DNA of 41,043 nt, taken from NCBI GenBank assembly GCA_938049385.1, contig CALIBQ010000021.1, positions 1-41,043 on the forward strand, given 5' to 3'. This DNA is from an uncultured Anaerolineae bacterium (GTDB lineage: Bacteria > Chloroflexota > Anaerolineae > JACIWP01). Each line of letters opens with the position of its first letter. Within the stretch, counting starts at the first letter, position 1. Below the pieces are notes generated by a model, which worked only from the letters and a program-made list of their open reading frames with translations, was not told where the DNA came from and did not search any database. The position numbers were made by a program, and so were the translations under genes. This document shows positions 8,033 to 36,900 of the stretch, one piece after another.

Positions 8033-8081
8033 CCGCCTGGTGCTGGCGTCCATCACCATGCTCTCATATCACGGAGGGAAT

Positions 8082-9518: not shown

Positions 9519-9571
9519 CGCCGGCGTCAGCACAATGGTTTCGTACGTCTGCGCAGAGAGGAGATTATCCC

Positions 9572-10585: not shown

Positions 10586-10601
10586 TGAAGGGTGGATAGG
10601 A

Positions 10602-11275: not shown

Positions 11276-11302
11276 GCACCTCCTGCGCGGTCTACTGCTC
11301 TC

Positions 11303-18916: not shown

Positions 18917-18937
18917 TGCATGTAACCTACGGCAGTC

Positions 18938-18971
18938 GGGGGCAGGATTGGCCTTGGGGCTGCCTGCCCCC
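18938..18971 (+). repeat. Stem-loop between binding protein and ATPase genes
   Basis: GGGGGCAGG (18938-18946) and CCTGCCCCC (18963-18971) form a perfect 9-bp stem with a 16-base loop. No T-run follows. It may stabilise the 3' end of the binding-protein message and lower downstream expression. Confidence 0.6.
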
Positions 18972-18997
18972 TGTATTCCTGCATGAAAGGGAGCGGT

Positions 18998-20536
18998 ATG
19001 GAGAGCCTTCTGCGGCTGGAGAAAATCTGCAAGACCTTCCCTGGGGTAGTCGCGAATGACCATGTGGACCTGGAGATACTGCCGGGGGAGATTCATGCGC
19101 TGTTAGGGGAGAACGGCGCCGGCAAGACCACCCTCATGAACTGCGTCTACGGCGTCTATCGGCCGGACAGCGGCACCATTTACTGGAAGGGCCGGCCGGT
19201 CGAGATTCATCAGGCGCGCGATGCCATCGCCTTGGGCATCGGCATGGTGCATCAGCACTTCATGCTCGTGCCGCCTCTGACGGTGGCCGAGAACATCATC
19301 CTGGGCCTTCCTTCACCGCGCGAACCACTGCTGGACCTGAAGAGCGCCTCGCGCCAGATTCGCGAGCTGGCGCAGAGCTATGGGCTACCCATCGAACCTG
19401 ATGTGCCCGTCTGGCAGTTGCCGGTGGGGGTACAGCAACGTGTGGAAATCCTGAAAGCCTTGTACCGTCAGGCCGAACTGCTGATTCTCGATGAGCCGAC
19501 GGCTGTGCTCACCCCTGGCGAGGTGGAGGAACTGTTCAAAGTCCTCCGAGCCTTCAAAGAAAAGGGGCTGTCCATCATCTTTATCTCACACAAATTAGAA
19601 GAGGTGATGACCATCTCTGACCGCATCACGGTCATGCGGGCCGGCAAGGTGGTGGACACCCTGCCGGCTTCCCGCACCAACCCGCGCGAGCTGGCGCGCA
19701 TGATGGTGGGGCGGGAGGTGTTCCTGCATATCGAGAAGCCCCCCTGCACCCCTGGAGAAGTGGTGCTGGAACTGGAGAACGTGCGCGCCCAAAGCGATAG
19801 GGACTTGCCGGCGTTGAAGGGCATTTCGCTCCAGGTGCGTGCCGGCGAGATTGTGGGAATCGCCGGCGTGGATGGCAACGGCCAGACGGAGCTGGCAGAA
19901 GTTATCGCCGGCCTGCGGAGGGTCACCGAAGGGCGCATACGCGTTCTGGGAAAGGACATCACCAACTGTATGCCCAAGGACATCATCGACCTGGGCGTGG
20001 CCTTTGTCCCACCAGACCGTCAGCATATGGGGTTGTTGTTGGACTTTACCGTCAGCGAGAATCTCATCGGAAAGTCTTTCGACCGGCCGCCGTTTTCCCG
20101 GTATGGCTTTCTACAGAGGCGGTTTATCGAGAACTTCTGCGACGGCGCAATCCGAAGCTGTGATATCCGGACGCCCCATGCCCAAGTGCCGGTGAAGCTT
20201 CTCTCGGGCGGCAACCAGCAGAAGGTCGTGCTGGCCAGGGAGTTGAGTCTTCAACCCAAACTGCTGGTCGCTTCCCAGCCTACTCGCGGGCTGGATGTCG
20301 GTGCGACGGAATATATCCGCCGGCAGATGGTGGAGGCGCGCAGTGCCGGCACCGCCATCCTGCTCATTTCCACCGAACTGGATGAGGTGCTGTCCCTGTC
20401 CGACCGCATTGCGGTGATTTACGAGGGGGAAATCATGGGTATCATGTCGGCGGCAGAGGCAGACCTGCAGGAAATCGGTCTGCTGATGGCCGGCTCGCGT
20501 GCCCATGTTGCCACCGGCACCCCACAAACGGCGTGA
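18998..20536 (+). CDS. Double ABC ATPase of a BMP/simple-sugar-type transporter
   Basis: The 512-residue protein carries two nucleotide-binding domains. The first has Walker A GENGAGKTT near 37-45, signature LPVGVQQRVEI near 142 and Walker B LLILDEPTAV near 163. The second has a weaker Walker A (GVDGNGQTEL near 290), signature LLSGGNQQKVVLAREL near 400 and a degenerate Walker B (LLVASQPTRGLD). That asymmetry is normal for RbsA/NupO-like ATPases. It powers the permeases encoded just downstream. I chose ATG 18998, which follows AAAGGGAGCGGT; an in-frame ATG at 18983 has no site. The next gene starts 10 bases after the stop. Confidence 0.95.
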   Translation: MESLLRLEKICKTFPGVVANDHVDLEILPGEIHALLGENGAGKTTLMNCVYGVYRPDSGTIYWKGRPVEIHQARDAIALGIGMVHQHFMLVPPLTVAENIILGLPSPREPLLDLKSASRQIRELAQSYGLPIEPDVPVWQLPVGVQQRVEILKALYRQAELLILDEPTAVLTPGEVEELFKVLRAFKEKGLSIIFISHKLEEVMTISDRITVMRAGKVVDTLPASRTNPRELARMMVGREVFLHIEKPPCTPGEVVLELENVRAQSDRDLPALKGISLQVRAGEIVGIAGVDGNGQTELAEVIAGLRRVTEGRIRVLGKDITNCMPKDIIDLGVAFVPPDRQHMGLLLDFTVSENLIGKSFDRPPFSRYGFLQRRFIENFCDGAIRSCDIRTPHAQVPVKLLSGGNQQKVVLARELSLQPKLLVASQPTRGLDVGATEYIRRQMVEARSAGTAILLISTELDEVLSLSDRIAVIYEGEIMGIMSAAEADLQEIGLLMAGSRAHVATGTPQTA

Positions 20537-20546
20537 GGAATGTGAC

Positions 20547-21806
20547 ATGTTGAGATTGCAAGAATCCACAAACCGCTGGGAGATTCTCTATCGGCGCTTT
20601 CTGGAGCGCTCGTTCAATATCCTCATTCCACTGGGTGCTATCTTGGCCGCCTTTGTGATCAGCAGTGCGCTCATCGTAGCAAGGGGTGCTAACCCTCTCT
20701 CAGCTTACGCGGCGCTGTTCGCCGGCGCCTTCGGTAGCAGTAACGCCCTGGCCAATACCGTAACGCGCATGGTGCCGATCATTATGACGGGCTTGGCGGT
20801 GACCTACGGCTATCGGAGCGGCTTTTTCAACATCGGCGCCGAGGGGCAGTTGTTCATGGGTGCCATGGCTACCACGTGGATGGGGATTACCCTGACGGGC
20901 TGGCCGGCGTGGTTGTTGATCCCGGCCAGTTTGCTCGCCGGCGCTTTGGCCGGCTCCCTCTGGGCGCTCATCCCAGGCTACCTGAAGGCCAAAAGGGGCT
21001 TCAACGAGGTGCTGACCACCCTCTTGCTGAACTACATTACCATCCAGCTTTTCGAGTTCCTTATCCGTGTGGACCACGCGGTGGGGCTCGGTCATCCCTT
21101 TCTGGCATGGATCGGGCTGAAAGACCCCACCCAGCCGTTCCCTAAGTCGGCCTATATCACAGAGGCAGCGCGCATGCCCTCGCTGACCAGCCTCCTCACC
21201 TGGCTGGGAGGCACAGCCGAAGACCCAGCCTTCCAGCGCTTCACCCTGGCGGCGGTCGTCGCTGTGCTGGCCGCGGTCGTCATCTACATACTGTTGTTCA
21301 AGACTACCACGGGATATCGGGCGCGGGCAGTGGGCGTCAACCCGCGGGCGGCACAGTACATGGGCATCAACGTCGTGCGCACCACCATCACCACAGCGCT
21401 GATCAGCGGTGCGCTGGCCGGCATGGCCGGCTCTCTGGAAATCATGGGCTTCCAGCACCGCGTCATCCAGAACTTCCTCGTGGGCGCCGGCTATGACGGT
21501 ATCCCGGTGGCGCTCATCGGCCAGTTGAACCCGCTGGGGGTGCTGTTGAGCGCGCTGTTCTTCGGTGCCCTGCGCGCCGGCGCCAACCGCATGCAAATTG
21601 TCTCCGGCGCGCCGGTGTCCATCATTTACGTCATCCAGTCGCTGGCCATCCTCTTCGCCATCGCCGGCACGGTGATTGACCTGCGGCCGCGCCGGCTGAA
21701 GCAGGCCGAGATCGAGGAAGCCAAGCGGTTGGAAGCAGAGCTTGCCCTGCAGTCCTCCCCCGCGACAGGGACGGACATCCTTGGCGAGGAGGCCCGCCAT
21801 GTTTAG
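20547..21806 (+). CDS. ABC transporter permease (BPD_transp_2 family), first subunit
   Basis: This 419-residue integral membrane protein of the LivHM/RbsC/NupP permease family has about eight to ten hydrophobic helices. Motifs include FFNIGAEGQLFMGAMATTWM, KAKRGFNEVLTTLLLNYITI and RAVGVNPRAAQYMGI, and the coupling region ISGALAGMAGSLEIMGF. Its N-terminus is cytoplasmic and the C-terminal tail is charged (KQAEIEEAKRLEAELA). I chose ATG 20547, after GTGAGGAATGTGAC. It overlaps the second permease gene by eight bases, a sign of translational coupling. Confidence 0.93.
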   Translation: MLRLQESTNRWEILYRRFLERSFNILIPLGAILAAFVISSALIVARGANPLSAYAALFAGAFGSSNALANTVTRMVPIIMTGLAVTYGYRSGFFNIGAEGQLFMGAMATTWMGITLTGWPAWLLIPASLLAGALAGSLWALIPGYLKAKRGFNEVLTTLLLNYITIQLFEFLIRVDHAVGLGHPFLAWIGLKDPTQPFPKSAYITEAARMPSLTSLLTWLGGTAEDPAFQRFTLAAVVAVLAAVVIYILLFKTTTGYRARAVGVNPRAAQYMGINVVRTTITTALISGALAGMAGSLEIMGFQHRVIQNFLVGAGYDGIPVALIGQLNPLGVLLSALFFGALRAGANRMQIVSGAPVSIIYVIQSLAILFAIAGTVIDLRPRRLKQAEIEEAKRLEAELALQSSPATGTDILGEEARHV

Positions 21807-22758
21807 TCAGCTCCTTGAGATCTTTACCTCGGTAGCGTTTTACGCCGCGGTCATCCGCCTGACCGCGCCCTTACTGCTGTCGGCTATGGGTGGACTGGTG
21901 GCGGAGCGCTCCGGCATCATCACCTTTGGCATGGAAGGTATGATGCTGATGGGGGCGATTGGTGCCGCGGTGGGGAGCTATTACACCCAAAGCGTGCTGG
22001 GGGGATTGGTCTTTGCCATGCTGGCCGGCATGTTCCTGGCGTTCCTGTACGGCATCATGTGCGTCACCGTCGGCGCCAACCAGGTGGTCTCCGCCGTGGC
22101 GCTGAACCTGGGAGCGCTGGGCCTTTCCAGCACTATTTTCGCGCTGGTCTTCTCCAACAAGGCGTTGGGGGTGGTGACGGAAGTCGTCAGTGTCCCCAGC
22201 ATGCGGCCGGTGAAAATACCCCTCCTGGGCGATATTCCCATTCTGGGGGATATCCTGTTCAACCAACTGCCGCTGGTGTATATAGCGTTTCTGGCGGTGC
22301 CGGCGGTGTGGTTCGTGCTCTACCGCACCACTATCGGGCTGAAGATCCGTTCGGTGGGCGAGCATCCGCACGCCGCGGATACGGTGGGCATCAGCGTGGT
22401 GCGGGTGCGCTATCTGAGCGTGCTGTTCACAGGTTTAATGGCCGGCCTGGCCGGTGCCCTTCTGTCCATCGGGATGCTGAACACTTTCCAGGAGAACATG
22501 TCTGCCGGCCGCGGGTTCATCGCCTATACGGCTATCGTCTTCGGCAAATGGGAGCCGTTCGGCATCCTGCTGGGCACCCTGCTCTTTGGGCTGGCGGATG
22601 CCATCCAACTGCGCATTCAGGCCCTGAATCTGCCCATCCCGTATCAGTTCTGGGTGGCGTTCCCATATATCGTGACACTGCTGGCGCTGGTGCTGTTCGT
22701 TGGCAAAGCGACCTGGCCGGCGGCCTCTGGTCAACCGTTCAAGCGGGAGAGCAAATAG
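21799..22758 (+). CDS. ABC transporter permease (BPD_transp_2 family), second subunit
   Basis: The 319-residue membrane protein partners the preceding permease. Typical motifs are TAPLLLSAMGGLVAERSGII, FGMEGMMLMGAIGAAVGSYY, GANQVVSAVALNLGALGLS and RSVGEHPHAADTVGI. LMAGLAGALLSIGML and AIVFGKWEPFGIL follow. The start ATG at 21799 lies within the end of the first permease gene, behind GGCGAGGAGGCCCGCC. The heterodimer, with the double ATPase and the BMP lipoprotein, makes a complete importer. Confidence 0.93.
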   Translation: MFSQLLEIFTSVAFYAAVIRLTAPLLLSAMGGLVAERSGIITFGMEGMMLMGAIGAAVGSYYTQSVLGGLVFAMLAGMFLAFLYGIMCVTVGANQVVSAVALNLGALGLSSTIFALVFSNKALGVVTEVVSVPSMRPVKIPLLGDIPILGDILFNQLPLVYIAFLAVPAVWFVLYRTTIGLKIRSVGEHPHAADTVGISVVRVRYLSVLFTGLMAGLAGALLSIGMLNTFQENMSAGRGFIAYTAIVFGKWEPFGILLGTLLFGLADAIQLRIQALNLPIPYQFWVAFPYIVTLLALVLFVGKATWPAASGQPFKRESK

Positions 22759-22791
22759 TCGTTTCCTCGAAACACTGTTAAGGAGCAGAAT

Positions 22792-23571
22792 ATGAAGCGA
22801 TTCGTGGGACAGGTGGCGGTGATCACTGGTGCTGGGAGCGGCATCGGCAAGGCGTGTGCACTGCGGTTCGCCCAAGAGGGTGCTAACGTCCTGTGTCTGG
22901 ATGTCAACGATTCCGCCAACGAGGCGGCGGCCCAAGAATGCCGGCAGCACGGCGTCGAAGCCCTGGCCATGCACTGCGATGTGACGCGGGAAGAAGACAT
23001 CGAGCGCGCTGTGCAAACGGCCATGGACCGGTGGGGCCGCATTGACATCCTCGTGGCGGCCGCCGGCATCTACCGGGGCGCGCCGCTGGCGGAGGTCCCT
23101 TTGAAGCAGTGGCAGTTGGTCATTGACATCAACCTGACCGGCGTGTTCCTCAGCAACCGGGCGGTCGCGCCCATCATGATGAAACAGCGTTCCGGCAGTA
23201 TCATCAACATTTCCTCCATGGCCGGCAAAACGAGCTGGCCGGCCAGTGCCGAGTATTCCGCTTCCAAGAGCGGCGTCATCGGCCTGACTCGCTCAGTGGC
23301 TATGGAGCTGGCTCCTTACGGTGCTACGGCCAACGCAGTCTGCCCGGGCAACACCCGCACGGAGATGGTGGAACATGTGGCCGCTACCATCGCCGCGCGG
23401 GAGGGCATTACCCCAGAGGAATGGCTGAGCCAGCGCGCCAAGGACTGCCCGATGGGCAGGTTCGCGGAGCCGTGGGAGATCGCCGGCGTCGTGGCGTTCC
23501 TGGCTTCAGAGGACTCGCGCTATCTCACCGGCCAGGCTATCGAGGTGGACGGCGGCATGGTGATGAGCTGA
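22792..23571 (+). CDS. SDR-family dehydrogenase (polyol/sugar dehydrogenase candidate)
   Basis: This is a 259-residue classical SDR with an intact active site. The cofactor loop TGAGSGIG is at 12-19, and Asp38 (LDVND), at the end of beta-2, favours NAD(H). AAAG is at 89-92. Ser141 or Ser142 lies in INISSMAG, and Tyr155 and Lys159 are in YSASK. The C-terminal GQAIEVDGGMVMS is typical. Set between the transporter and an FGGY kinase, it probably oxidises the imported polyol or sugar to a ketose; this is inference from context. It follows the second permease by 33 bases, with AAGGAGCAGAAT as ribosome-binding site. Confidence 0.93.
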   Translation: MKRFVGQVAVITGAGSGIGKACALRFAQEGANVLCLDVNDSANEAAAQECRQHGVEALAMHCDVTREEDIERAVQTAMDRWGRIDILVAAAGIYRGAPLAEVPLKQWQLVIDINLTGVFLSNRAVAPIMMKQRSGSIINISSMAGKTSWPASAEYSASKSGVIGLTRSVAMELAPYGATANAVCPGNTRTEMVEHVAATIAAREGITPEEWLSQRAKDCPMGRFAEPWEIAGVVAFLASEDSRYLTGQAIEVDGGMVMS

Positions 23572-23605
23572 TGCAAGTTCCCAATCATCGAGCGAGGCGG
23601 TGAGC

Positions 23606-25105
23606 ATGCCGGCACTGCTGTTGGGGGTGGATCTCGGGACACAGGGGGTCAAAGGCGTACTGGTGGATGCGAAGGGCAGTGTGCTGGCGTCCGCCGGCCT
23701 GGCGCGCGGCCCCCGCCATCCTCGCCCTGGCTGGGTCGAGATGGATGCCGAACAAGACTGGTGGGTGCCGGCCGCCGAAATCATGCGCCGGCTCACCGCG
23801 CAGCTCCCCGAGCACACCGGTTTCATCGCCGCAGTGGGAGTATGCGGGCTGGTGCCCTGCCTGTGTCCGATGGGCGCGGATGGCTGGCCCCTGCGGCCGG
23901 CCATCCTGTATTCGGACAACCGCGCCCTGGAAGAGCTGGCCTGGGCCAACGCGCGCGCCGGCCTGTCCCTGACCGCCGAAGCCGTGGTGCCCAAACTGCT
24001 CTGGCTCCAGCGGCACGAGCCGGATGTCTTTGCCCGCACCACCGCGGTCCTGTCGGCGCATAATTACGTGGTACTGCGGCTCACTGGCCGGCGCAGTATG
24101 GATTATGACACCGCCAGCATTATAGGCGGCATCTTTGACCCGCATGGCAAACGTTGGGATGCGCAGGTCTGCCAGCAGTTGGGCATCCCGCCAGAAATCT
24201 GGCCGCCGCTGTATCCGGCCACTGCGCTGGTGGGCGAGGTTACCGCGGAAGCGGCGCGACAGACCGGTCTGCCCGCCGGCGTGCCGGTCATCGCCGGCTC
24301 CGGGGATACCTTCCCTACCATCGTCGGATGCGGCGCCGTGGACCCCGGCGATGCCATGCTCTCTTTCGGCACTACCGGTCTGCTGACCATCACCCGCCGG
24401 CCGCTGGTCGAGTCCGCCGGCGGCCCGCATTTCTCCAGCGCGGACGGCACGGCGGCCGTGGATTGGGGCGCAAACATCCTCTCGGCCAGCCGGCTGGTGG
24501 ATTGGTTCCTGCGCGAGTTCGGGGGGGCGGAACGCACTACAGCGGAACGGTTGGGTGAAAGCCCGTTCGTCCTGCTGGAACAGGAGGCGGCTCGTATCCC
24601 TGCTGGCTCAGAAGGATTGATCGTCCTGCCGCACTGGCTGGGCCGGCGCACCCCGACGCCTGACGCCACGATGCGCGGTGCCCTGCTGGGGCTAAGTCCG
24701 TCGCATACGGCGGCGCACATATACCGCGCCCTGTTGGAATCGTTCGCCTATAACGTGCGGCAGAGCCTGCCGGCGCACCGCCCGAACATCACCCGCCTGG
24801 TGGCGACCGCCGGCGGGGCGCGCAGCCGGCTCTGGCGGCAGATCTGCGCGGATGTGCTGGACATGCCGCTGGAGTATTACCCGCAGGCCAGCGGCGCGCT
24901 GGGGATTGCCTTCCTGGCCGGCTGCGCGGTGGGGCAGGTGCGGGACTTCTCCGCCATCAAGCACCAGTGGCTGAAAGAGCCGGAGCTGGTGTACCCGGAG
25001 GCCGGCGCCAAGGCGGTGTATGACCGGCTGTTCCCTATCTATGAGGAATTTGATGCGGCAGTGGCCGGCCCCTTCGCTCACCTGGCTGAAATACGAGATA
25101 GGTGA
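23606..25105 (+). CDS. FGGY-family carbohydrate kinase (xylulokinase-like)
   Basis: The 499-residue kinase has the two actin-like domains of the FGGY family. ATP-phosphate loop GVDLGTQGVKGVLVD is at 7-21, DNRALEELAW is near 104, and the catalytic Asp is probably Asp234 in GSGDTFPTIVG. The C-terminal signature is YRALLESFAYNVRQ with VATAGGARSRLWRQICADVL near 400. It phosphorylates a ketose, pentose or related polyol; xylulose kinase and LsrK are both relatives. ATG 23606 has GAGG at proper distance, better than the GTG at 23600. The stop codon lies inside a 31-base perfect hairpin. Confidence 0.92.
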   Translation: MPALLLGVDLGTQGVKGVLVDAKGSVLASAGLARGPRHPRPGWVEMDAEQDWWVPAAEIMRRLTAQLPEHTGFIAAVGVCGLVPCLCPMGADGWPLRPAILYSDNRALEELAWANARAGLSLTAEAVVPKLLWLQRHEPDVFARTTAVLSAHNYVVLRLTGRRSMDYDTASIIGGIFDPHGKRWDAQVCQQLGIPPEIWPPLYPATALVGEVTAEAARQTGLPAGVPVIAGSGDTFPTIVGCGAVDPGDAMLSFGTTGLLTITRRPLVESAGGPHFSSADGTAAVDWGANILSASRLVDWFLREFGGAERTTAERLGESPFVLLEQEAARIPAGSEGLIVLPHWLGRRTPTPDATMRGALLGLSPSHTAAHIYRALLESFAYNVRQSLPAHRPNITRLVATAGGARSRLWRQICADVLDMPLEYYPQASGALGIAFLAGCAVGQVRDFSAIKHQWLKEPELVYPEAGAKAVYDRLFPIYEEFDAAVAGPFAHLAEIRDR

Positions 25106-25131
25106 CAGTCACTTCACAAGTGACTGTCACC
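25101..25131. terminator. Perfect 14-bp stem-loop between convergent genes
   Basis: GGTGACAGTCACTT (25101-25114) and its complement (25118-25131) enclose a 3-base loop. The kinase stop TGA lies in the left arm. There is no T-run, yet the position between convergent genes suggests a bidirectional terminator. Each arm itself contains the palindrome GTGAC-N-GTCAC seen elsewhere in the window. Confidence 0.55.
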
Positions 25132-25171
25132 CGAATACGCAGCATATGCGGAAGGTTGAACATCCGATCGA

Positions 25172-25600
25172 TCAATCGGGATCTTCTGGTAGGGGATATA
25201 TCCGTGGTAGCTCGGAATTTCGGGGTTCCGGGCGATATGTCTTCACCCGGATAAGGTGAATCGTCACGCCGACTGCTACTCCCAGCAATAGGACCTTAAT
25301 CCACCATGCTGAAGCTACAAACCATGCCGAGTAGCCAATCGTCGCCCATAACAGTATAATCGTGATGACCTTTTGCTTGAGAGGTATCCCTCTACCCTCC
25401 CGATAATTCCGAATATATTCCCCGCACCACCGATTGGTCAGCAACCAGCGCAGAAAGCGCTCGGAACTGCGTGCATAGCAGATGCTTGCCAGAAGTAAAA
25501 AGGGGGTAGTGGGCAATATAGGCACGAACATGCCGAGAATCCCCAGTGCCACGCACAGTGTGCCGCAGGCAATCAGGAGGGTTTTGACTACGCGATTCAT
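25172..25600 (-). CDS. DUF454 (YbaN-family) membrane protein
   Basis: The 142-residue inner-membrane protein matches DUF454/YbaN: MNRVVKTLLIACGTLCVALG, ILGMFVPILPTTPFLLLASI, YARSSERFLRWLLTNRWCGE and YIRNYREGRGIPLKQK. Two helices of its second half follow (about 80-115). The function of the family is not established. The gene is A+T-richer than its neighbours, and the stretch 25106-25742 holds none of the GCCGGC hexamers that pepper the rest, which suggests recent acquisition. It has its own promoter and starts behind TAGGAGCCGCTA. Confidence 0.9.
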   Translation of the reverse strand: MNRVVKTLLIACGTLCVALGILGMFVPILPTTPFLLLASICYARSSERFLRWLLTNRWCGEYIRNYREGRGIPLKQKVITIILLWATIGYSAWFVASAWWIKVLLLGVAVGVTIHLIRVKTYRPEPRNSELPRIYPLPEDPD

Positions 25601-25661
25601 TAGCGGCTCCTATCTCGTACCGTCGTACCAGACGGGATAAAATAGATGACATTTTTGAACA

Positions 25662-25689
25662 ATTATACATATAATGGTAGATTCGACAA
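25662..25689 (-). promoter_or_regulatory. Probable promoter for the DUF454 gene
   Basis: The minus strand has TTGTCG (25684-25689), a 16-base spacer and a perfect TATAAT (25662-25667), about 60 bases before the start codon. Confidence 0.5.
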
Positions 25690-25742
25690 AGTCGCCACTG
25701 TGAGAATTGCGCGACAGGCGCTAGTCGCCTGCCAGGTGACTG

Positions 25743-26555
25743 CTACAAGACCAAGCGGGTGCCGGCGCATTCCGCCGGCGCGAGCAGACAAGCCTCTAAT
25801 GCCCCTGGCCGTTCGGCGGAGAAGACATGTACCTCAAGGCCCGGCTGATGACGCACCAGCTCCGCCATGATGCGCACCTTGCTCCACATGCCCCCTGTCA
25901 CATCCACTCCATGCGAGGAACCCAATTCCGCCTCCAGGGCCTCGAGCTGGGAGGCGCGGATCTCCGCCAGCGGCACAGCATCTGGGTGCGAAAGGGGGTC
26001 CGCGGTACAGACGCCGTCCACCGTGCCGGCCAGCAGGATGCGCGCCGGCCGGAGAATGGGGGCCAGATAGGCGAACAGCTCCTCGGTGGATACGATGGTG
26101 CATCCCCACTCCTCATCGAAGGCCACGTCGCCGTAAATTACGGGCAGGAGGCCGGCTTCCAGGGCGCGGGTCAGCGGCTCCCAGGCCAGTTCCTGGAGCT
26201 GGCCGGCGCGACAGCGGGCGGTAGCGGAGGGCGCGAAGCTGAATGCCGGCAGGCCGGCTTCTACCAGCGCGTCCGTGACCAGCCGGTTCAGGCGGGCGGC
26301 GGCGGCGCCGGTGGCGGCGAAACCATACCAGCCGCGCGCTTCTTCACCCGGGCGAATGCCATGTCTGGTATTGTACTCGCGGCCGGCGAAGTGGCCGAAG
26401 GAACCGCTTCCATGCCCTACCAGCAGGCGCATATTGGGCTGGACTTGTTTGGCCGCGGCAATCTCTTGTGCCAGCCGGCGGATGACATCCATCCTCGGCG
26501 TTTCCCGCCGGCGCTTATCCGTGATGAGGGAGCCGCCCAGCTTGAGGAATATCAT
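25743..26555 (-). CDS. Isopentenyl phosphate kinase
   Basis: The 270-residue amino-acid-kinase-fold protein converts isopentenyl phosphate to isopentenyl diphosphate with ATP. LKLGGSLIT is at 4-12, and GHGSGSFGHF at 47-56 contains the His (His55) that distinguishes isopentenyl phosphate kinases. VIYGDVAFDEEWGCTIVSTE near 135, LLAGTVDGVCTADP near 172 and DVTGGMWSKV near 217 complete the signature. Its start overlaps the aconitase X small-subunit stop by four bases (ATGA). It is the last gene of the mevalonate cluster and its product is the last enzyme of the pathway. Confidence 0.94.
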   Translation of the reverse strand: MIFLKLGGSLITDKRRRETPRMDVIRRLAQEIAAAKQVQPNMRLLVGHGSGSFGHFAGREYNTRHGIRPGEEARGWYGFAATGAAAARLNRLVTDALVEAGLPAFSFAPSATARCRAGQLQELAWEPLTRALEAGLLPVIYGDVAFDEEWGCTIVSTEELFAYLAPILRPARILLAGTVDGVCTADPLSHPDAVPLAEIRASQLEALEAELGSSHGVDVTGGMWSKVRIMAELVRHQPGLEVHVFSAERPGALEACLLAPAECAGTRLVL

Positions 26556-26974
26556 CCCTTCTCAGGCTCCGCGCTGGATTTGCGCACGTACACCGTGCCG
26601 TCCTGAATGCGCACCCAGTCGCCGGTGGCAATTTGCTCGATGGGGATGCGGTCCACCATGGGGATGCCGGCGATGATGGCGCCCACGGCGACGATGGTCT
26701 CGCTCTGGGCGCAGATGATGCCGGCCGGCGCGGTGCCGTTCTTGGCCATGCGGTAGATAGTGTAGGAACCGACGGTACTGCCCTTGCCGGTGGGGAAAAC
26801 GAGAATGCGGCCGGCGGCGCTAGTGCCCTCCAGCGGATGGCCCGGCTCAATGATGACGCCGCTGTCCGGGTCCACACCTCCCAGGAAGCTGATGGGCGTC
26901 GGCGAGACCAGCGCCTTGCCCTCGGCGGAGCCGGCCTTGATGATACGGCCGTGGAAGACCAGTTCCTGCGCCAT
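26552..26974 (-). CDS. Aconitase X small (swivel) subunit, phosphomevalonate dehydratase
   Basis: The 140-residue protein is of the DUF126/AcnX swivel family. Motifs include LVSPTPISFLGGVDPDSGVI, HPLEGTSAAGRILVFPTGKG and SYTIYRMAKNGTAPAGIICA. SETIVAVGAIIAGIPMVDRI carries the conserved Ser. With the large subunit it should dehydrate mevalonate 5-phosphate to trans-anhydromevalonate 5-phosphate, as shown for archaeal homologues. I chose ATG 26974, with GAGG ahead. An ATG at 26983 forms an ATGA overlap with the large-subunit stop and is an alternative (143 residues). The downstream kinase gene also overlaps by four bases. Confidence 0.92.
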   Translation of the reverse strand: MAQELVFHGRIIKAGSAEGKALVSPTPISFLGGVDPDSGVIIEPGHPLEGTSAAGRILVFPTGKGSTVGSYTIYRMAKNGTAPAGIICAQSETIVAVGAIIAGIPMVDRIPIEQIATGDWVRIQDGTVYVRKSSAEPEKG

Positions 26975-26979
26975 TATCC

Positions 26980-28212
26980 TCATCTCCAGCGGCCGGTCAG
27001 CGCGGCTTCCAGACACTGCTCCGTCGTGCCAAAGCGCGTTTCCAGGCCGGAATGACTGCGGGCATACAAGGCGGCCTTGGCGGAGTTGGTGGCCAGGGAG
27101 CGCACGCTGAGCAGTTCCATTGGCGCGACAATGACGCAGGTATCGGCCACCACCTGCCCGCCGGCGGCTTCAATCTGGGCGACGATGCCGGCGCGCTCCG
27201 CCTCCTCCCGCACCTGGCGCGCGGTCGTGATCCAGAGGCGCGTGCGGACCTGTTTGCCGGCCAGGAAGCGGGCAATCTCGTCCAATTCCTCCAACGAGGC
27301 GTGCGGGCATCCCAGGCTGACCAGGTCAACCTCCTCCAGCGGGCCGTTGAGCTTTTGGTAGCCGGCCGACAGGTCGTGAATGGTGAAGCGGGGGATGCCG
27401 GCCGGCAGGATGTCCGACAGGCCGGCTTCCGGGGTGATGCCCTCCACATGATACAGCCCCACCGCGCCGCTGGCGGCCATCGCCGCCCCCAAGGCTTTCA
27501 GCGCCTCTTCCGGCCGGCGGGTCCAGCGCAGGTCCAGGCCGCGGAAATAGGGCACGCCGTCGCGCACCAGCTCGCCGGCCAGTGCGCCCAGCGCGCCGAT
27601 ATCAGCGGTGGAGCGCACGGATGCCCGCACCTCGATGATGTGGGTGGCGCGGCGGTTCTCGTCCAAGTGCAGGCCGTAGGCGCCGGTGCGGCCGGCGATG
27701 GCCGCCGCCAGCGCGCTGGGTCCGCCCTCGCGATTGGTACGCGCGCCCAGCACCGAGTTGGCGAAGCTGACCGCCGAGGACTCGCTCCATGCCACATGGG
27801 AGCCAAGGGCCGGCCGCAGGCCGACGTAATAGGGCGTGCAGGTCAGCGAGGGCGCGATACCCATGCGGGTGAAGGCCGCGATGACCGCCATCTGGAACCG
27901 TGCGAACTCTTCGGGAATGCCCAGCTCCCGCCAGCGCTGAAGGTCCATGCCGGCGGGGTTGAGAAAGGCCGGCACGCGAACGCGGGCACCCTCGTCGGCC
28001 CATTCCTGCAGGAACTGGAGGCCGGCGTCGCCCAGGTTTTTGTAGCTCACGCCGGCGACCTGCGCGCTTTCCACAGGCACCAGGTGCCGCGCGCCGTAAA
28101 TCTTGGCGAGCGCGGTAACGATTTCCATGGCCTTGCGTACCGCCGGCCCCGCCTCGCCGGCGAGCATGGCTTGCTCTTCATCGGTCAGGTGCAAATCGTT
28201 ATCCCGGGGCAT
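26980..28212 (-). CDS. Aconitase X large (catalytic) subunit, phosphomevalonate dehydratase
   Basis: This is a 410-residue protein of the aconitase X catalytic family. The N-terminus LHLTDEEQAMLAGEAGPAVR is typical. Three conserved Cys, Cys125 (SLTCTPYY), Cys302 (LGCPHASLEE) and Cys359 (ADTCVIV), fit the iron-sulfur cluster ligands. ESSAVSFANSVLGARTNREG near 144-163 is a hallmark. Homologues also include proline-racemase-linked hydroxyproline dehydratases, but the flanking mevalonate kinase, UbiD and isopentenyl phosphate kinase settle the role as phosphomevalonate dehydratase. The start at 28212, seven bases after the UbiD stop, gives the usual N-terminus; the frame is open upstream but reads through the UbiD gene. 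Confidence 0.94.
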   Translation of the reverse strand: MPRDNDLHLTDEEQAMLAGEAGPAVRKAMEIVTALAKIYGARHLVPVESAQVAGVSYKNLGDAGLQFLQEWADEGARVRVPAFLNPAGMDLQRWRELGIPEEFARFQMAVIAAFTRMGIAPSLTCTPYYVGLRPALGSHVAWSESSAVSFANSVLGARTNREGGPSALAAAIAGRTGAYGLHLDENRRATHIIEVRASVRSTADIGALGALAGELVRDGVPYFRGLDLRWTRRPEEALKALGAAMAASGAVGLYHVEGITPEAGLSDILPAGIPRFTIHDLSAGYQKLNGPLEEVDLVSLGCPHASLEELDEIARFLAGKQVRTRLWITTARQVREEAERAGIVAQIEAAGGQVVADTCVIVAPMELLSVRSLATNSAKAALYARSHSGLETRFGTTEQCLEAALTGRWR

Positions 28213-28219
28213 AGGATGG

Positions 28220-29518
28220 TCACTCGTAGCGGAAGCGCTGGAAGGCCTCAGGGTGCCGCGGTCCCTTCTCATCATCCCAGGGGATGGTGGCATCCACCGC
28301 CATTTTGGCCGTGCGGGCCTTTTGGCCCGGGATGTGTTTGGCCGAAGGGTCCAGGGAACTGGAGGGCTGGTCCTCCCAGATAATGATATCGCGATCTGCC
28401 TGCACGCGCGTGGCGATGGCCCATTCGACCTCTTGCATGTCGAAGGGGTTGATATCCTCGTCCACCACGACCGCATGTTTCAGCGAGCCGTGGCCGCGAA
28501 AGGCGGCTTCGCCGGCCCGCCGGCCGTCGTCGGGACGGCGCTTGCGTATCTGCACCACAGCATGGAGCCAGGAGGCGCCGCCGGGGGTGATCCAAACGTT
28601 GAGGCACTCGCAGACCTCATTGACGGCGGCGAAAATGGTCGGCTCGCGCGGCATGCCCATCAACGTGCGGTGCTCCGGCCCGCCGGGGAGGAGCGCTTGA
28701 TAGATGGGATCGCGCCGACGGGTGATGCGGTCAATCTCAACGACCGGCTGTTTGCGGACGATGTCGAAGGTGCCGGTCAGGTCAATAAACGGTCCCTCGT
28801 CCACCAGCTCATGGGTGATGCGGCCTTCGAGCACGATCTCCGATTCCGCCGGCACCAGGAGGTCCGAGCCCAGACAGCGCACCAAGGGGGTTGGTGCCAG
28901 AGCATGGGCAATATGGAACTCCGGGATGCCGCCGGCGGGGGACATGGCGGCGGCAAGCTGAGCGCTGAGGGGCGCCCCGATGCAGATGGCTACCGGGACA
29001 TCCTCCGTGGAACTGGCCCAAACGCTGTGGGTATGCCGGCCCTCGACCAGACGCACGGCGAAACGCCGGCGGTCCAGCCGCATTAGGCGGTGAAAGGCGG
29101 CGTTGAGGACCCCGCGCGCCAGGTCATGGACCACGGCGATGCCGGCGGTGATGTATGGTCCGCCGTCATGGGGCGTATGCCGCACGATGGGCAGGGCCTC
29201 CAGGTCCACATCCTCCTCGACCACTTCCTGGCAAGGCGCGGCGGTAACGATAGGCGGGACGGCCGGCGATTCCAGCGCTTTCACCAGATATGCACACAGC
29301 TCTCGCTCGTCAATGCCGAAGGCCAGGGCGAAATAGCGGCGCGAGGCGCAAACACCGGAGATGACCCGGTAGCCGTTCCAGCGGGAGCGGAAGAAGAGGA
29401 TTTTATCGCCGGCGCGGTACATGAGCCGCACCATGCCCTCGTCTGGCGCGACCGGCGTGTCCACATGCTCGACCCACTGACGTTCTTCCGCCTGCTGGAT
29501 GAAATCACGCAACTGCAT
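28220..29518 (-). CDS. UbiD-family decarboxylase, probable anhydromevalonate phosphate decarboxylase
   Basis: This 432-residue UbiD-fold protein needs prenylated FMN in its known relatives. The catalytic region reads EIVLEGRITHELVDEGPFID (227-246), giving Glu241 and Asp246 of the Glu/Glu(Asp) pair. The conserved Arg is probably in FHRLMRLDRRR (142-152). Other family features are TAGIAVVHD, HIAHALAPTPLVRC and KHAVVVDEDINPFD. In context it should decarboxylate trans-anhydromevalonate 5-phosphate to isopentenyl phosphate. No flavin prenyltransferase (UbiX) gene lies in the window. Its start overlaps the mevalonate kinase stop by 14 bases. Confidence 0.92.
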   Translation of the reverse strand: MQLRDFIQQAEERQWVEHVDTPVAPDEGMVRLMYRAGDKILFFRSRWNGYRVISGVCASRRYFALAFGIDERELCAYLVKALESPAVPPIVTAAPCQEVVEEDVDLEALPIVRHTPHDGGPYITAGIAVVHDLARGVLNAAFHRLMRLDRRRFAVRLVEGRHTHSVWASSTEDVPVAICIGAPLSAQLAAAMSPAGGIPEFHIAHALAPTPLVRCLGSDLLVPAESEIVLEGRITHELVDEGPFIDLTGTFDIVRKQPVVEIDRITRRRDPIYQALLPGGPEHRTLMGMPREPTIFAAVNEVCECLNVWITPGGASWLHAVVQIRKRRPDDGRRAGEAAFRGHGSLKHAVVVDEDINPFDMQEVEWAIATRVQADRDIIIWEDQPSSSLDPSAKHIPGQKARTAKMAVDATIPWDDEKGPRHPEAFQRFRYE

Positions 29519-30467
29519 AGCGGCTCTGCTCCGCAGAAGGGGATGAGACCTGCGTGAAGATGACTCGGACGGCGCCGGCGGTGCGCAGGGCTTGCTCCAC
29601 CACGGCAGCGCGTTCTGGTGTGACCAGCGCGATCATATTGCCGCCTCTGCCGGCGCCGCTCAGCTTGGCACCCAGGGCGCCGGCCCCTTTCGCCGCATGC
29701 ACCAATGCGTCGAGTTCGGGGCAGGAGACGCCGATCTCCTGCAGGAGGCGGTGATTTTCATCCATCAGCCGGCCAAGGGCGGGGAGGTCGTCGGCGTGCA
29801 GTTTCTGCCGCGCGGTGTTCACCAGCTCGCCGATGGCGTCAAAGAGTCCCTCGTAGCGCTCTGGCGCTCTGGCATGCGCCTCCCGCACTGCACCCACGAC
29901 CTCGCGCGTACTGCTGAAAATGCCGGTGTCGGCGATGAGCAGGGGCAGGGGGGCGCCGATGGACAGGAGGGCCGGCGGCTGGCCCTTGATGAAATATACC
30001 GGGGCCTCAAAGGCAATGACCGTGTTATCAATCCCGCTGGGGGTACCGTGGTACAGCTTTTCGGCCTCGAACACCAGGGCGGAGACCTTTTCCGCCGGCC
30101 AGCCGGCGCCGAAATGCCGGCTCAGCGCCCGCACGATAGCGGTGGAGACCGCCGCGCCGCTCCCCATGCCTCTGCCAATAGGCAGTCCGGAGCGCACGGT
30201 AATGCGCAGGCCGTGTGCCGATATGCCCAGTTCCTTCAGCGTCAGACGCACCAAGTGGGCAATGGCGTCGTCCGCGCCGGCCTCCGAGAGCCAGCAGTTT
30301 CGGCCGAGGTCCGGTGCTTCCAGCAGGATGTCGCCGGCGTCCGGCAGGGGTTCCACCACGGCTTCGGCGCGCACCTGGCTGACTGGCACAGCGATGGCCG
30401 GCCGGCCGTACACCACCGCGTGTTCCCCGAACAGGATCACCTTGCCGCAGGCACTGGCGCTCGTCAT
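29505..30467 (-). CDS. mvk: Mevalonate kinase
   Basis: The 320-residue GHMP-family kinase starts with CGKVILFGEHAVVYGRPAIA (7-26). The ATP loop is GLPIGRGMGSGAAV at 95-108, followed by ALVFEAEKLYHGTPSGIDNT near 130 and the C-terminal AKLSGAGRGGNMIAL near 267. This pattern is specific for mevalonate kinase, which makes mevalonate 5-phosphate. It is the first gene of the five-gene cluster and has its own promoter. The ATG at 30467 lies behind AAGGAATGTGATGG. No HMG-CoA synthase or reductase gene is present in the window. Confidence 0.94.
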   Translation of the reverse strand: MTSASACGKVILFGEHAVVYGRPAIAVPVSQVRAEAVVEPLPDAGDILLEAPDLGRNCWLSEAGADDAIAHLVRLTLKELGISAHGLRITVRSGLPIGRGMGSGAAVSTAIVRALSRHFGAGWPAEKVSALVFEAEKLYHGTPSGIDNTVIAFEAPVYFIKGQPPALLSIGAPLPLLIADTGIFSSTREVVGAVREAHARAPERYEGLFDAIGELVNTARQKLHADDLPALGRLMDENHRLLQEIGVSCPELDALVHAAKGAGALGAKLSGAGRGGNMIALVTPERAAVVEQALRTAGAVRVIFTQVSSPSAEQSRYAVA

Positions 30468-31540: not shown

Positions 31541-32386
31541 TTATAATTTTCTCCAAACGCCCGTGGTGACGTGTTGGACAAATCCCAGCTTTTGTAAGAT
31601 TTGCAATTGCTGGCGTATCTTGGCCCTAATGTTCATATTCTGCGGATAATGTTGGCGGAAATAATCCTCATATGCATAGATGTCCTGATTAGAAAATTCA
31701 CCTTCTGGCAGGACATCATATACCAATTCGAGCCAACCAAACAGGTCGGCCCTTGATGGTTTCGGGCGTTGAAGAGTGCCGGCCTTCGTTGAGAAGGCCT
31801 TTCTCAAGGTGCGAATTTCGGACAGCCGCGCCTGTTGTCTTTCGGAGCGTTTTTCGACCGCACATAGTTCTGCAAACAAATGGATGAATTCATCGTCTGG
31901 GACAACTCTCAGTGGATGGAATTTCAACCGGTAATAGGTGTTGAAGATCTCGGATACAAGCTCTGAATGGATATCATCCTGAATCACCACATTGGCCTCG
32001 ATGTTCGAGGTCAATCCACTCCGCGTCAGGTTAGACGAACCAATAATTGCGGTGATGATCGGATCGTTCCGCATCAGATATATCTTCGGGTGGTATAGGA
32101 TGGAAATACTGCGTGGGACAAAGCACAAGAGTGTTGCATGTGGATTCTGTTGGGCAAGCAAATACAGTTCGCGGATGGCCGCAGGGTCGGTAGCGCGAGG
32201 GTCCATGCCCACGAGGAACTCTACATTTGCGCCGGCCGTCAGCCGTTGCTCCACCGCGGGCATAATCTGTGAGATTCCATCGCTGGATACGAAAGCTACC
32301 GCAATGCGGATATCCGTTGCGCTTTCAATGGCGGGAACCAATATCGAAACTGTTTTATGTTGGACGTTGTCAACGATTTGAATCAC
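31541..32386 (-). CDS. PLD-superfamily nuclease-like protein with DpnI-like winged helix
   Basis: The 281-residue protein has one phospholipase-D-type active-site half. It shows YHPKIYLM (His99, Lys101) followed by IIGSSNLTRSG (about 115-125, Asn119), an HxK...GSxN pattern. One half per chain implies a dimer, as in BfiI and Nuc. The C-terminal region (about 210-281; SNQDIYAYEDYFRQHYP, RAKIRQQLQILQKLGFVQHV, TTGVWRKL) closely recalls the winged helix at the end of DpnI and Dam-replacing proteins. It is probably a DNA-acting nuclease of a restriction or defence type. The start is GTG at 32386 behind GGGAGGACGACC. It is A+T-richer than its surroundings, suggesting transfer. No methylase lies nearby. 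Confidence 0.8.
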   Translation of the reverse strand: MIQIVDNVQHKTVSILVPAIESATDIRIAVAFVSSDGISQIMPAVEQRLTAGANVEFLVGMDPRATDPAAIRELYLLAQQNPHATLLCFVPRSISILYHPKIYLMRNDPIITAIIGSSNLTRSGLTSNIEANVVIQDDIHSELVSEIFNTYYRLKFHPLRVVPDDEFIHLFAELCAVEKRSERQQARLSEIRTLRKAFSTKAGTLQRPKPSRADLFGWLELVYDVLPEGEFSNQDIYAYEDYFRQHYPQNMNIRAKIRQQLQILQKLGFVQHVTTGVWRKL

Positions 32387-34359: not shown

Positions 34360-36900
34360 ATGATACTGCTGGATCATCTGCTCGCGGCCGCCGGCGGCCG
34401 GCTGGTGGGGCCGGCGGTGGCGCGCTCCTTCGCCGATTTCTGCTTCGATTCCCGCCTGTTGAACCCGGGGGAGCTGTTTCTGGCGGTCAAGACCGCCACC
34501 GGCGACGGGCATGATTACATCCTCGAGGTGGTGCAGGCCGGCGCCGGCGGCGTCCTATGCGAGCGGCCGCCGGCGGAACTGCCGCGCCCGGTGACAGTAA
34601 TCCAGGTTTCCGATACCCAGCAGGCGCTCCTGGATTGGGCCGGCTACATCCTCCAACGGTACGGCACCGAGGTGGTGGGCATCACCGGCTCCACCGGCAA
34701 GACCAGCACCAAAGAGGCCATTGCCGTGGTGCTGGGCCGGCGCTACCCGGTCTTCCGCAACTACGCCAATTACAACGGCCGCTACGGTCTGCCCATCGCC
34801 CTGGGCCGGCTGGAGCCGGCGCACCGCATCGCCGTGCTGGAGATGGCGTGCGATGCCTTCGATGAGATCCGCCTGCTGGCGGAGATCACCCGTCCTAAGG
34901 TCGGCGTGGTCACCGCCGTTAATCCCGCCCATCTGTCCACCTTCGGGACGCTGGAAAACATCGCTCAGGAGAAAGGGCAACTGGTGCGGGCACTGCCGGC
35001 GGACGGCTGGGCCGTGCTCAATGCCGATGACCCGCGTGTGCGCGCCATGGCCGGCTGGACCAAGGCACGCGTATTGACCTATGGCACGGATCCCCAGGCG
35101 GACGTGCGCATCGGCGGTATGGAGAGCGAGTGGTCCGGCAGTCGCATTGTGCTGTGCGTGCGGGGGCGTGAGTACCACGGCCGGCTGAAGCTGTTGGGCC
35201 GGCACAGCGCCTATATCGCCGCGGCCGCAGTGGCGGTCGGGCTGGTCTATGACATTCCCCCGGATGAGGCGCTGGAGACGCTGGCCGCGATGGAGCCGGT
35301 GGAGGGCCGGCTGAGGCCGCTGGAGGGCATCTCCGGCGTACGCCTGCTGGACGATACCTACAACGCCTCGCCGGCCTCGACGCTGGCGGCATTGGACACG
35401 CTGGCCAGTCTGCCGGCCGAACGCCGGCTGGCGGTGCTCGGCTATATGAATGACCTGGGGGATTTCGAGGAGGAGGCACATCGGCAGGTGGGCCGGCGGG
35501 CCGCCGAGGTCCTGGACTATCTGGTCATCAAGGACGAACGGGCCCGCCCCATTGCGGTTGCGGCTGAGGAACACGGGCTGGCCGGCAGTGCCATCTTCGT
35601 GGGCAACACCGATGCGGAGATCACTGCTCACCTGAAGAGCTTTCTGCGCGCCGGCGATGCAGTGTTGGTGAAAGGGGGCGTTGAGGCGCGGCTGGAAAAT
35701 GTGGTCAAGGAGCTGTTGGCGCGGCCGGAGGAGGCGCCGGCGAAGCTGGTGCGGCAGAACCGCGCCTGGCAGTCCATTCGCCTGGTGCGCCCGGGCCGGC
35801 CGACCTGGGTAGAGATTGACCTGAACGCCGTCGCCAACAACGTCCAACGCATCGCCGAGATCGTGGGGCCGAAGGTGCGCATCATGGCGGTGCTCAAGGC
35901 CGATGCCTACGGGCACGGCGCGGTGCGGATCGCGCGCACGGCGCTGAACCACGGCGTCAGCTATCTGGGGGTGGCCTGCCTGGGGGAGGCGGAGGTCCTG
36001 CGGGAGGCCGGCATCCAAGCCCCCATCCTCATATTGGGGTACACGCCGGCCTGGCAGGCGCGCGAGGCCATCCTGGCGAACACCGCCGTCACCCTCTTCT
36101 CCGAGGATGTGGCGCGGGCCTTCAGCCGGGCGGCGCAGGAGCTGAACCGGCCGGTCACGGTGCACGTCAAGGTGGATACCGGCATGGGCCGGCTGGGCCT
36201 TCTGCCGCATGAGGTCGTGCCCTTCGTCGAGTTTCTGAGCGGACTGCCAGGCTTGGTGCTGGAGGGCATTTTCACCCATTTTTCCACCGCCGATGCGGCC
36301 GACAAGCGCTATACCTATCACCAGCTCGCGGTGTTCCGGCAGGTGCTGGCGGAGCTGGAGGAGCGGGGCTACCGCTTCCCGCTGGTGCATGCGGCCAACT
36401 CGCCGGCGACCCTCAGCGTGCCCGAAAGCCATTTCAATATGGTGCGGGTGGGCATCGCCATATATGGGCTGGCGCCCTCCCCGGAGACGCCGCTTCCGCC
36501 CGGCTTTCGGCCGGCGCTCTCCTTCAAGACCCAGGTGGCGCAGGTCAAGGAACTGCCGCCAGGGAGCTATATCAGCTACGGCAACACGTACCGCACGCAG
36601 GGATATGAGCGCATCGCCGTGATCCCGGTGGGCTATGCGGATGGCTTCCGGCGGGGGCCGGCGCACTGGGGCGAGGTGCTGGTGAAGGGCCGGCGGGCAC
36701 CCATCGTGGGGCGCGTGTGCATGGACCAGACCATGATCAACGTGACGCATATCCCCGATGTGCGCCAGGGGGATGAGGTGGTGCTCATCGGCCGGCAGGG
36801 CTCCGAGGAGATCACGGTGGATGAGGTGGCGCGCCGGCTGGGCACCATCAATTACGAGGTGGTCTCGGAAATCCTGGCGCGCGTCCCGCGAGTTACATAA
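34360..36900 (+). CDS. Bifunctional MurF - alanine racemase fusion
   Basis: One 846-residue chain joins two cell-wall enzymes. Residues 1-470 are UDP-MurNAc-tripeptide:D-Ala-D-Ala ligase: ATP loop GSTGKTS at 110-116, then RNYANYNGRYGLPIAL, the His-containing VNPAHLSTFGT near 187, and LLDDTYNASPAS near 330. Residues 480-846 are a PLP alanine racemase: WVEIDLNAVANN near 483, Lys513 in VLKADAYGHG as the PLP lysine, Tyr740 in ISYGNTYRT as the other catalytic base, and GRVCMDQTMINV. No stop or frameshift interrupts the join. Such fusions are known from Bacteroidota. The product makes D-Ala and uses D-Ala-D-Ala, so the organism should build peptidoglycan. The start follows GAGGGGGCG. Confidence 0.95.
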   Translation: MILLDHLLAAAGGRLVGPAVARSFADFCFDSRLLNPGELFLAVKTATGDGHDYILEVVQAGAGGVLCERPPAELPRPVTVIQVSDTQQALLDWAGYILQRYGTEVVGITGSTGKTSTKEAIAVVLGRRYPVFRNYANYNGRYGLPIALGRLEPAHRIAVLEMACDAFDEIRLLAEITRPKVGVVTAVNPAHLSTFGTLENIAQEKGQLVRALPADGWAVLNADDPRVRAMAGWTKARVLTYGTDPQADVRIGGMESEWSGSRIVLCVRGREYHGRLKLLGRHSAYIAAAAVAVGLVYDIPPDEALETLAAMEPVEGRLRPLEGISGVRLLDDTYNASPASTLAALDTLASLPAERRLAVLGYMNDLGDFEEEAHRQVGRRAAEVLDYLVIKDERARPIAVAAEEHGLAGSAIFVGNTDAEITAHLKSFLRAGDAVLVKGGVEARLENVVKELLARPEEAPAKLVRQNRAWQSIRLVRPGRPTWVEIDLNAVANNVQRIAEIVGPKVRIMAVLKADAYGHGAVRIARTALNHGVSYLGVACLGEAEVLREAGIQAPILILGYTPAWQAREAILANTAVTLFSEDVARAFSRAAQELNRPVTVHVKVDTGMGRLGLLPHEVVPFVEFLSGLPGLVLEGIFTHFSTADAADKRYTYHQLAVFRQVLAELEERGYRFPLVHAANSPATLSVPESHFNMVRVGIAIYGLAPSPETPLPPGFRPALSFKTQVAQVKELPPGSYISYGNTYRTQGYERIAVIPVGYADGFRRGPAHWGEVLVKGRRAPIVGRVCMDQTMINVTHIPDVRQGDEVVLIGRQGSEEITVDEVARRLGTINYEVVSEILARVPRVT

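What the first reader, a model, noticed from the sequence alone, without database searches (positions are those of the whole stretch)
25743..30467. Complete archaeal-type (anhydromevalonate phosphate) lower mevalonate pathway in one bacterial operon
Seen: five minus-strand genes with overlaps or gaps under 10 bases, in the order mevalonate kinase, UbiD decarboxylase, aconitase X large, aconitase X small, isopentenyl phosphate kinase. Established: in archaea such as Aeropyrum pernix, AcnX dehydrates mevalonate 5-phosphate, a UbiD homologue decarboxylates the product to isopentenyl phosphate, and IPK makes IPP. Inference: this bacterium makes IPP by that route. Chloroflexota were known to me for the phosphomevalonate-decarboxylase plus IPK variant, so a full AcnX/UbiD set, perfectly clustered, is unexpected and suggests transfer from archaea or an ancient shared pathway.
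Basis: partly seen in the sequence, partly recalled or inferred. Interest (0 to 1): 0.9.

Follow-up and report, generated by a model that had tools for sequence, protein, structure and literature searches.

The report
Archaeal-type mevalonate operon in Chloroflexota bacterium
A Chloroflexota bacterium carries, in one tight operon, all five genes of the lower mevalonate route typical of archaea for making isoprenoid building blocks; such a route was already reported in this phylum in 2024, but here the operon is a mosaic of archaeal and native genes and the usual cofactor-making gene, ubiX, could not be found.

Summary
In detail: five minus-strand genes (MVK, UbiD, AcnX-L, AcnX-S, IPK; 25743-30467) with overlaps of 14, 4 and 4 bases and one 7-base gap, on a bacterial contig. 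AcnX-L is type IIb (phosphomevalonate dehydratase): it groups with archaeal enzymes and keeps the cluster cysteines and mevalonate-5-phosphate contacts of TkPMDh. The genome has HMG-CoA reductase and an adjacent HMG-CoA synthase-like gene; no IspG (MEP) and no mevalonate decarboxylase were found. Of 25 Chloroflexota genomes with this AcnX clade, 21 lack the decarboxylase, against 1 of 11 others. So IPP is most likely made via trans-anhydromevalonate phosphate. This is not new in kind: Kanno et al. 2024 (cited in PMC13001223) report the archaeal pathway in the Chloroflexota bacterium Ca. Promineifilum breve. What is added: the operon is a mosaic. UbiD is nested in archaea (AU p=0.0005), whereas MVK and IPK are native Chloroflexota genes, adjacent to each other in several relatives without the cassette. 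One loose end is real: UbiX, which makes UbiD's prenyl-FMN cofactor, was not found in this genome or in five of six relatives with at least the UbiD-AcnX-IPK cluster.

The parts
29505..30467 (-). mevalonate kinase (MVK); first gene; native Chloroflexota lineage
   Evidence: TIGR00549 258.9 bits; solved MVKs are its best PDB matches, 6mde first; groups with MVK of PMDh-free Chloroflexota, 95/85* and 98/98*
28220..29518 (-). UbiD-family decarboxylase, predicted trans-anhydromevalonate phosphate decarboxylase (AHMPD)
   Evidence: TIGR00148 348 bits; nested in archaeal operon UbiDs (AU p=0.0005); N139, R144, E227, E241 and subfamily-wide D246 kept
26980..28212 (-). aconitase X large subunit, predicted phosphomevalonate dehydratase (type IIb)
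   Evidence: PF04412 503 bits; TkPMDh 7cnr 355 bits vs type I C3LHyp dehydratase 272 bits; three cluster Cys (125, 302, 359) and substrate contacts G54 V55 S56 N59 N85 P86 S145 K379
26552..26983 (-). aconitase X small (swivel) subunit; ATG start in a 4-base overlap with the large subunit (longest ORF starts GTG 27016)
   Evidence: PF01989, NF003046 over cut-off; TkPMDh small chain 128 bits, GKGST motif conserved
25743..26555 (-). isopentenyl phosphate kinase (IPK); last gene; native Chloroflexota lineage
   Evidence: NF040647 169.6 bits > 120; best PDB 3ll9 IPK, HGxGSFGH motif kept; groups with IPK of Chloroflexota without PMDh, apart from nearly all archaeal IPKs

Best explanation
This is the lower half of an archaeal-type (anhydromevalonate phosphate) mevalonate pathway in a Chloroflexota bacterium. 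MVK phosphorylates mevalonate; the AcnX pair with a [4Fe-4S] cluster dehydrates mevalonate 5-phosphate to trans-anhydromevalonate phosphate; the UbiD homologue decarboxylates it to isopentenyl phosphate; IPK makes IPP. It takes the place of the mevalonate-phosphate decarboxylase that other members of the phylum use. The operon is a mosaic: an archaeal UbiD-AcnX-L-AcnX-S cassette (in archaea and in one Chloroflexota relative preceded by ubiX) placed between the native mvk and ipk genes. Gene content, residues and trees are shown here; enzyme activities are inferred; the source of prenyl-FMN is unknown.
For: Families over cut-offs. AcnX-L and AcnX-S closest to TkPMDh 7cnr. The residues reported for TkPMDh and ApPMDh (PMC10040528) are kept: three Cys, G-V-S-N phosphate loop, N-P, S, K; the G-V-S signature and the site-1 Cys separate type IIb from the other Chloroflexota AcnX. 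AcnX tree: the outgroup of other AcnX types splits off at 97/92; the window lies in a Chloroflexota clade of 32 (98/81) among archaeal PMDh. UbiD nested in archaea, alternative rejected at AU p=0.0005. Upper pathway present: HMGR followed by an HMGS-like and a thiolase-like reading frame on C15. IspG not found in G000 or in 15 other genomes of the phylum, while 9 control genomes ring. Decarboxylase (TIGR01240) not found in G000 and in 21 of 25 genomes of this clade, but over cut-off in 10 of 11 genomes of the class without this clade (Fisher p=4e-5). MVK and IPK native; IPK present in 30 of 30 genomes tested; mvk directly upstream of ipk in 7 genomes without this cassette.
Against: UbiX was not found in G000 in three searches, yet UbiD enzymes are expected to need prenyl-FMN. 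No activity was measured. For AcnX alone, a position outside archaea is not rejected (AU p=0.49). PMK and IPP isomerase were not searched. The genomes are mostly MAGs (own genome 98% complete).
Confidence: 0.9

Rival explanations
1. The whole five-gene operon was transferred from an archaeon (Bathyarchaeota-like gene order MVK-UbiD-AcnXL-AcnXS-IPK), and is not a mosaic.
For: Bathyarchaeota loci L158, L171, L176 and L178, and Diapherotrites L175, show the same gene order.
Against: MVK and IPK group with Chloroflexota that lack PMDh, not with Bathyarchaeota; the window UbiD is sister to L133/L136 and not to the Bathyarchaeota. IPK is universal in the genomes tested, and mvk-ipk is a native adjacent pair in several. 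It would need later replacement of both end genes by native copies.
Confidence: 0.12
2. The AcnX/UbiD genes serve another reaction (hydroxyproline-type dehydration or another 3-hydroxy acid), and IPP is made by an undetected decarboxylase or MEP pathway.
For: AcnX has other functions in bacteria (type I and IIa hydroxyproline dehydratases, PMC10040528); UbiX was not found.
Against: Co-operonic with MVK and IPK; PMDh residues conserved; no IspG and no decarboxylase found; hydroxyproline dehydratase model NF051439 far below cut-off (336 vs 700); type I site-C Cys absent (C359-V-I).
Confidence: 0.04
3. The contig is an archaeal contaminant or chimera in a bacterial bin.
For: AcnX and UbiD are of archaeal type.
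Against: Flanking genes are bacterial (MurF-Alr, RuvB, QueA, DprA); the operon plus its downstream flank is syntenic in the separately assembled RSWS7; MVK and IPK in the same overlapping run are of Chloroflexota type; L101 (MetRS, ribosomal L25) has bacterial neighbours too.
Confidence: 0.01

Closest known systems
Archaeal mevalonate pathway in Candidatus Promineifilum breve (Chloroflexota), Kanno et al. 2024 AEM 90:e0110624
   Same: Same phylum, same pathway (AcnX-type PMDh plus UbiD-type AHMPD feeding IPK). By my recollection of the abstract, PMDh was confirmed in vitro and AHMPD by carotenoid production in E. coli; only the title and citation were verified here (via PMC13001223).
   Different: The paper is not held, so gene arrangement and identity to P. 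breve could not be compared. In the window all five genes form one overlapping operon. In a sister AcnX clade (L111, L114, L115, L117, L119, L121, L123-L125, L127, L129, G361, G184) AcnX-L stands apart from ubiD and ipk in the stretches seen; whether P. breve belongs there was not tested.
Archaeal modified mevalonate pathway (Aeropyrum pernix; Thermococcus kodakarensis PMDh structure 7CNR/7CNS)
   Same: Same enzyme set and conserved PMDh residues; same gene order as in Bathyarchaeota operons.
   Different: MVK and IPK are of Chloroflexota descent; the host is a bacterium; UbiX not found, whereas many archaeal loci carry ubiX next to ubiD.
Chloroflexi/haloarchaea-type mevalonate pathway (mevalonate-phosphate decarboxylase plus IPK, Roseiflexus castenholzii, eLife 2013, PMC3857490)
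   Same: Shares the mevalonate 5-phosphate branch point, MVK and IPK.
   Different: The decarboxylase was not found in this genome; AcnX plus UbiD stand in for it.

Membership tests
Archaeal (anhydromevalonate phosphate) mevalonate pathway | Type IIb AcnX large and small subunits with three cluster cysteines and mevalonate-5-phosphate-binding residues | tested here: met
Archaeal (anhydromevalonate phosphate) mevalonate pathway | UbiD homologue of the archaeal operon clade (AHMPD) | tested here: met
Archaeal (anhydromevalonate phosphate) mevalonate pathway | MVK and IPK present, HMGR and HMGS upstream | tested here: met
   HMGS identified by its reading frame after HMGR and its pairing with HMGR in relatives; no family model was run on it
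Archaeal (anhydromevalonate phosphate) mevalonate pathway | No MEP pathway and no mevalonate-(di)phosphate decarboxylase | tested here: met
   IspG and TIGR01240 not found; other MEP genes and PMK not searched
Archaeal (anhydromevalonate phosphate) mevalonate pathway | UbiX flavin prenyltransferase to supply prenyl-FMN to AHMPD (an accessory need rather than a step of the pathway) | tested here: not met
   TIGR00421, PF02441 and a Chloroflexota UbiX profile find only a CoaBC-sized protein in G000
Archaeal (anhydromevalonate phosphate) mevalonate pathway | PMDh and AHMPD enzyme activities | not testable with these tools
   needs protein
Chloroflexi/haloarchaea-type pathway (decarboxylase + IPK) | Mevalonate-phosphate decarboxylase of the TIGR01240 family | tested here: not met
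[quoted passage not shown]
   Two genes; C359-V-I lacks site C; 336 bits vs 700
[quoted passage not shown]
   no IIa reference sequence at hand; the outgroup rows are Chloroflexota AcnX without the G-V-S loop, and their subtype was not assigned

The most novel reading that the evidence does not exclude
A bacterial lineage runs an essential UbiD-type decarboxylation without UbiX: either an unrelated enzyme makes prenyl-FMN, or this AHMPD works with another cofactor or with prenyl-FMN taken up from other organisms. The operon's relatives and archaeal counterparts suggest that a ubiX gene once preceded ubiD and was lost.
Probability: 0.2. Interest if true: 0.75.

Novelty: new member of a known kind. 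Interest (0 to 1): 0.42.

Why it matters
The archaeal mevalonate route saves ATP but uses an oxygen-sensitive iron-sulphur enzyme; its spread in Chloroflexota shows how an essential pathway step can be exchanged by placing a foreign cassette into a native gene pair. The lineage offers a natural experiment: 21 of 25 genomes with the cassette have no detectable old decarboxylase, four have both, and a second, separately acquired cassette coexists with the decarboxylase in other genomes. The missing UbiX makes a question about prenyl-FMN supply directly testable.

Tried and rejected
The Kanno et al. 2024 paper is not held, so P. breve could not be placed in the trees. The AU test on AcnX-L alone does not decide between a position inside or outside archaea, so the direction of transfer rests on UbiD. 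A hidden UbiX substitute in operons of relatives was looked for and not found: the genes next to the cassettes are unrelated (metallo-beta-lactamase fold, M50 peptidase, protein kinase-FGE fusion, L25, MetRS). Archaeal contamination was considered and rejected. The UbiD column equivalent to the third metal ligand (His) aligned unreliably and was not used. No structure prediction was run, because a solved homologue (7CNR) aligns over nearly the whole large subunit.
Full report
OBSERVATION. The window is a whole contig (G000:C21) of a 3.37 Mb genome in 85 contigs, 98% complete. The five minus-strand genes are real: MVK 29505-30467, UbiD 28220-29518, AcnX-L 26980-28212, AcnX-S 26552-26983, IPK 25743-26555. 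MVK and UbiD overlap by 14 bases, UbiD and AcnX-L are 7 bases apart, AcnX-L/AcnX-S and AcnX-S/IPK overlap by 4. All five families are recognised at or over curated cut-offs where a cut-off of the right family exists. The contig also holds MurF-alanine racemase, RuvB, QueA and DprA, and the separately assembled Anaerolineae MAG RSWS7 (L099) is collinear over window 18356-30198 at about 85% DNA identity, so it is neither archaeal nor chimeric.

AcnX IS A PHOSPHOMEVALONATE DEHYDRATASE BY SEQUENCE. The best solved relative of AcnX-L is the T. kodakarensis PMDh (7CNR, 355 bits) ahead of the type I hydroxyproline dehydratases (272 bits); the small subunit likewise. PMC10040528 names the three cluster cysteines of A. 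pernix PMDh (122, 297, 356) and the mevalonate-5-phosphate contacts of TkPMDh. The equivalents in the window are C125, C302, C359 and G54, V55, S56, N59, N85, P86, S145, K379. G-V-S and the site-1 cysteine are constant or nearly so in the archaeal and archaeal-type sequences and are not kept in the other Chloroflexota AcnX proteins used as outgroup. In the tree (80 rows) that outgroup separates at 97/92 and the window sits in a clade of 32 Chloroflexota sequences (98/81) among archaeal PMDhs.

UbiD. The protein is over the TIGR00148 cut-off. Its tree nests the Chloroflexota clade (97/91) within archaea, sister to L133 (archaeon NM3) and L136 (labelled Methanomicrobia) at 99/92; holding all archaeal and second-clade rows apart from it is rejected (AU p=0.0005). 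The AcnX tree shows L128/L133/L136 as the nearest archaeal rows too, but with weak support (83/48), and AU does not exclude a position outside archaea (p=0.49). N139, R144, E227 and E241, matched by me from memory to the Fdc1 metal and catalytic residues, are invariant; D246 replaces the glutamate seen in HmfF in every operon UbiD examined.

PATHWAY CONTEXT. The genome has HMG-CoA reductase, followed by a reading frame that I recognise as HMG-CoA synthase of archaeal type and the start of a thiolase-like frame; the same HMGR-HMGS pairing occurs in relatives. IspG was not found here or in the other 15 genomes of the phylum searched. TIGR01240 decarboxylase was not found here. Over 25 genomes carrying this AcnX clade it was found in four; over 11 genomes of the same class without this clade it passes the cut-off in ten (Fisher p=4e-5, or 1.4e-3 if the four genomes with the second cassette are left out). 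Shared ancestry makes these p-values optimistic. IPK was found in all 30 genomes tested.

A MOSAIC OPERON. The same order MVK-UbiD-AcnXL-AcnXS-IPK occurs in Bathyarchaeota and a Diapherotrites locus, which suggests wholesale transfer at first sight. The trees say otherwise: window MVK groups with MVKs of Chloroflexota without PMDh (95/85; 98/98 with L204 and L100) and window IPK with Chloroflexota IPKs, apart from 18 of 19 archaeal ones (100/96). In seven genomes without this cassette mvk lies directly upstream of ipk. The simplest reading is that an archaeal cassette was placed between, or beside, native mvk and ipk. AcnX-S next to IPK is kept even in G361, where AcnX-L has moved away. In many archaea and in Chloroflexota L101, ubiX directly precedes ubiD, so the cassette probably once included ubiX.

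THE MISSING UbiX. TIGR00421, PF02441 and a profile of three Chloroflexota UbiX proteins found in G000 only a 411-aa protein of CoaBC size. The profile also found nothing in G136 or in the genomes of L099, L100, L102 and L113, which share at least the UbiD-AcnX-IPK cluster; it did find UbiX in the genome of L101 and in ten other genomes of the 26 searched. The profile recovered divergent UbiX at E=1e-47, so sensitivity is adequate, but PF02441 showed no CoaBC in G200 and G361, so the first look is not perfect, and these are mostly MAGs. I rate true absence as likely and its explanation as open.

WHAT IS KNOWN. PMC13001223 states that some Chloroflexota encode an archaeal-type mevalonate pathway and cites Kanno et al. 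2024 on Ca. Promineifilum breve. That paper is not held; my memory of its abstract is that PMDh and AHMPD activity were both demonstrated and horizontal transfer was inferred. The window is therefore a new member of a known kind. New here, as far as I could check, are the tight five-gene operon, the mosaic origin, the near-exclusive relation with the decarboxylase, a second independent cassette, and the missing UbiX.

A SECOND CASSETTE. G072, G397, G200 and G232 hold ubiD, AcnX-L and AcnX-S with ubiX, plus a decarboxylase. Their UbiD and AcnX nest near DPANN/Bathyarchaeota sequences, apart from the window's clade: an independent acquisition. In G072 the decarboxylase lies next to the cassette, head to head with ubiD.

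Noticed in passing
L036 (G072) 6638-11295; also L041 (G397), L035 (G200), L037 (G232): A second, independently acquired UbiD-AcnX-L-AcnX-S cassette with UbiX in genomes of the same class that also keep the mevalonate-phosphate decarboxylase (in G072 directly beside it): two apparent routes to isopentenyl phosphate in one genome, or a cassette with a different job.
   Followed up: partly
L132 8001-10388: A MAG labelled candidate division KSB1 carries AcnX-L, AcnX-S and IPK in a row on a contig with bacterial-type histidine kinases, rmlC and a TolB-like protein; possible archaeal-type pathway in another bacterial phylum, or a binning error. No UbiD within the stretch held.
   Followed up: partly
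L034 (G011) 8446-9609: A third Chloroflexota AcnX-L groups with a Micrarchaeota sequence (99/98); that genome is listed as 8% contaminated, so it may not be bacterial.
   Followed up: no
L100 5847-7934: In the relative A05DMB24 the operon is interrupted between ubiD and AcnX-L by a 695-aa protein kinase/FGE-sulfatase-domain gene.
   Followed up: no
window 2904-3048 (-): Cobalamin riboswitch (RF00174, 38 bits) upstream of a 718-aa ORF (572-2728, minus strand) with squalene-hopene-cyclase/prenyltransferase-like repeats.
   Followed up: no
window 34360-36900 (+): One 846-aa ORF with Mur ligase and alanine racemase domains (MurF-Alr-like fusion).
   Followed up: no
window 31541-32386 (-): 281-aa protein with a PLD-like/NgoFVII restriction domain and a C-terminal DpnI-type HTH domain, near the operon; possible orphan restriction enzyme.
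   Followed up: no
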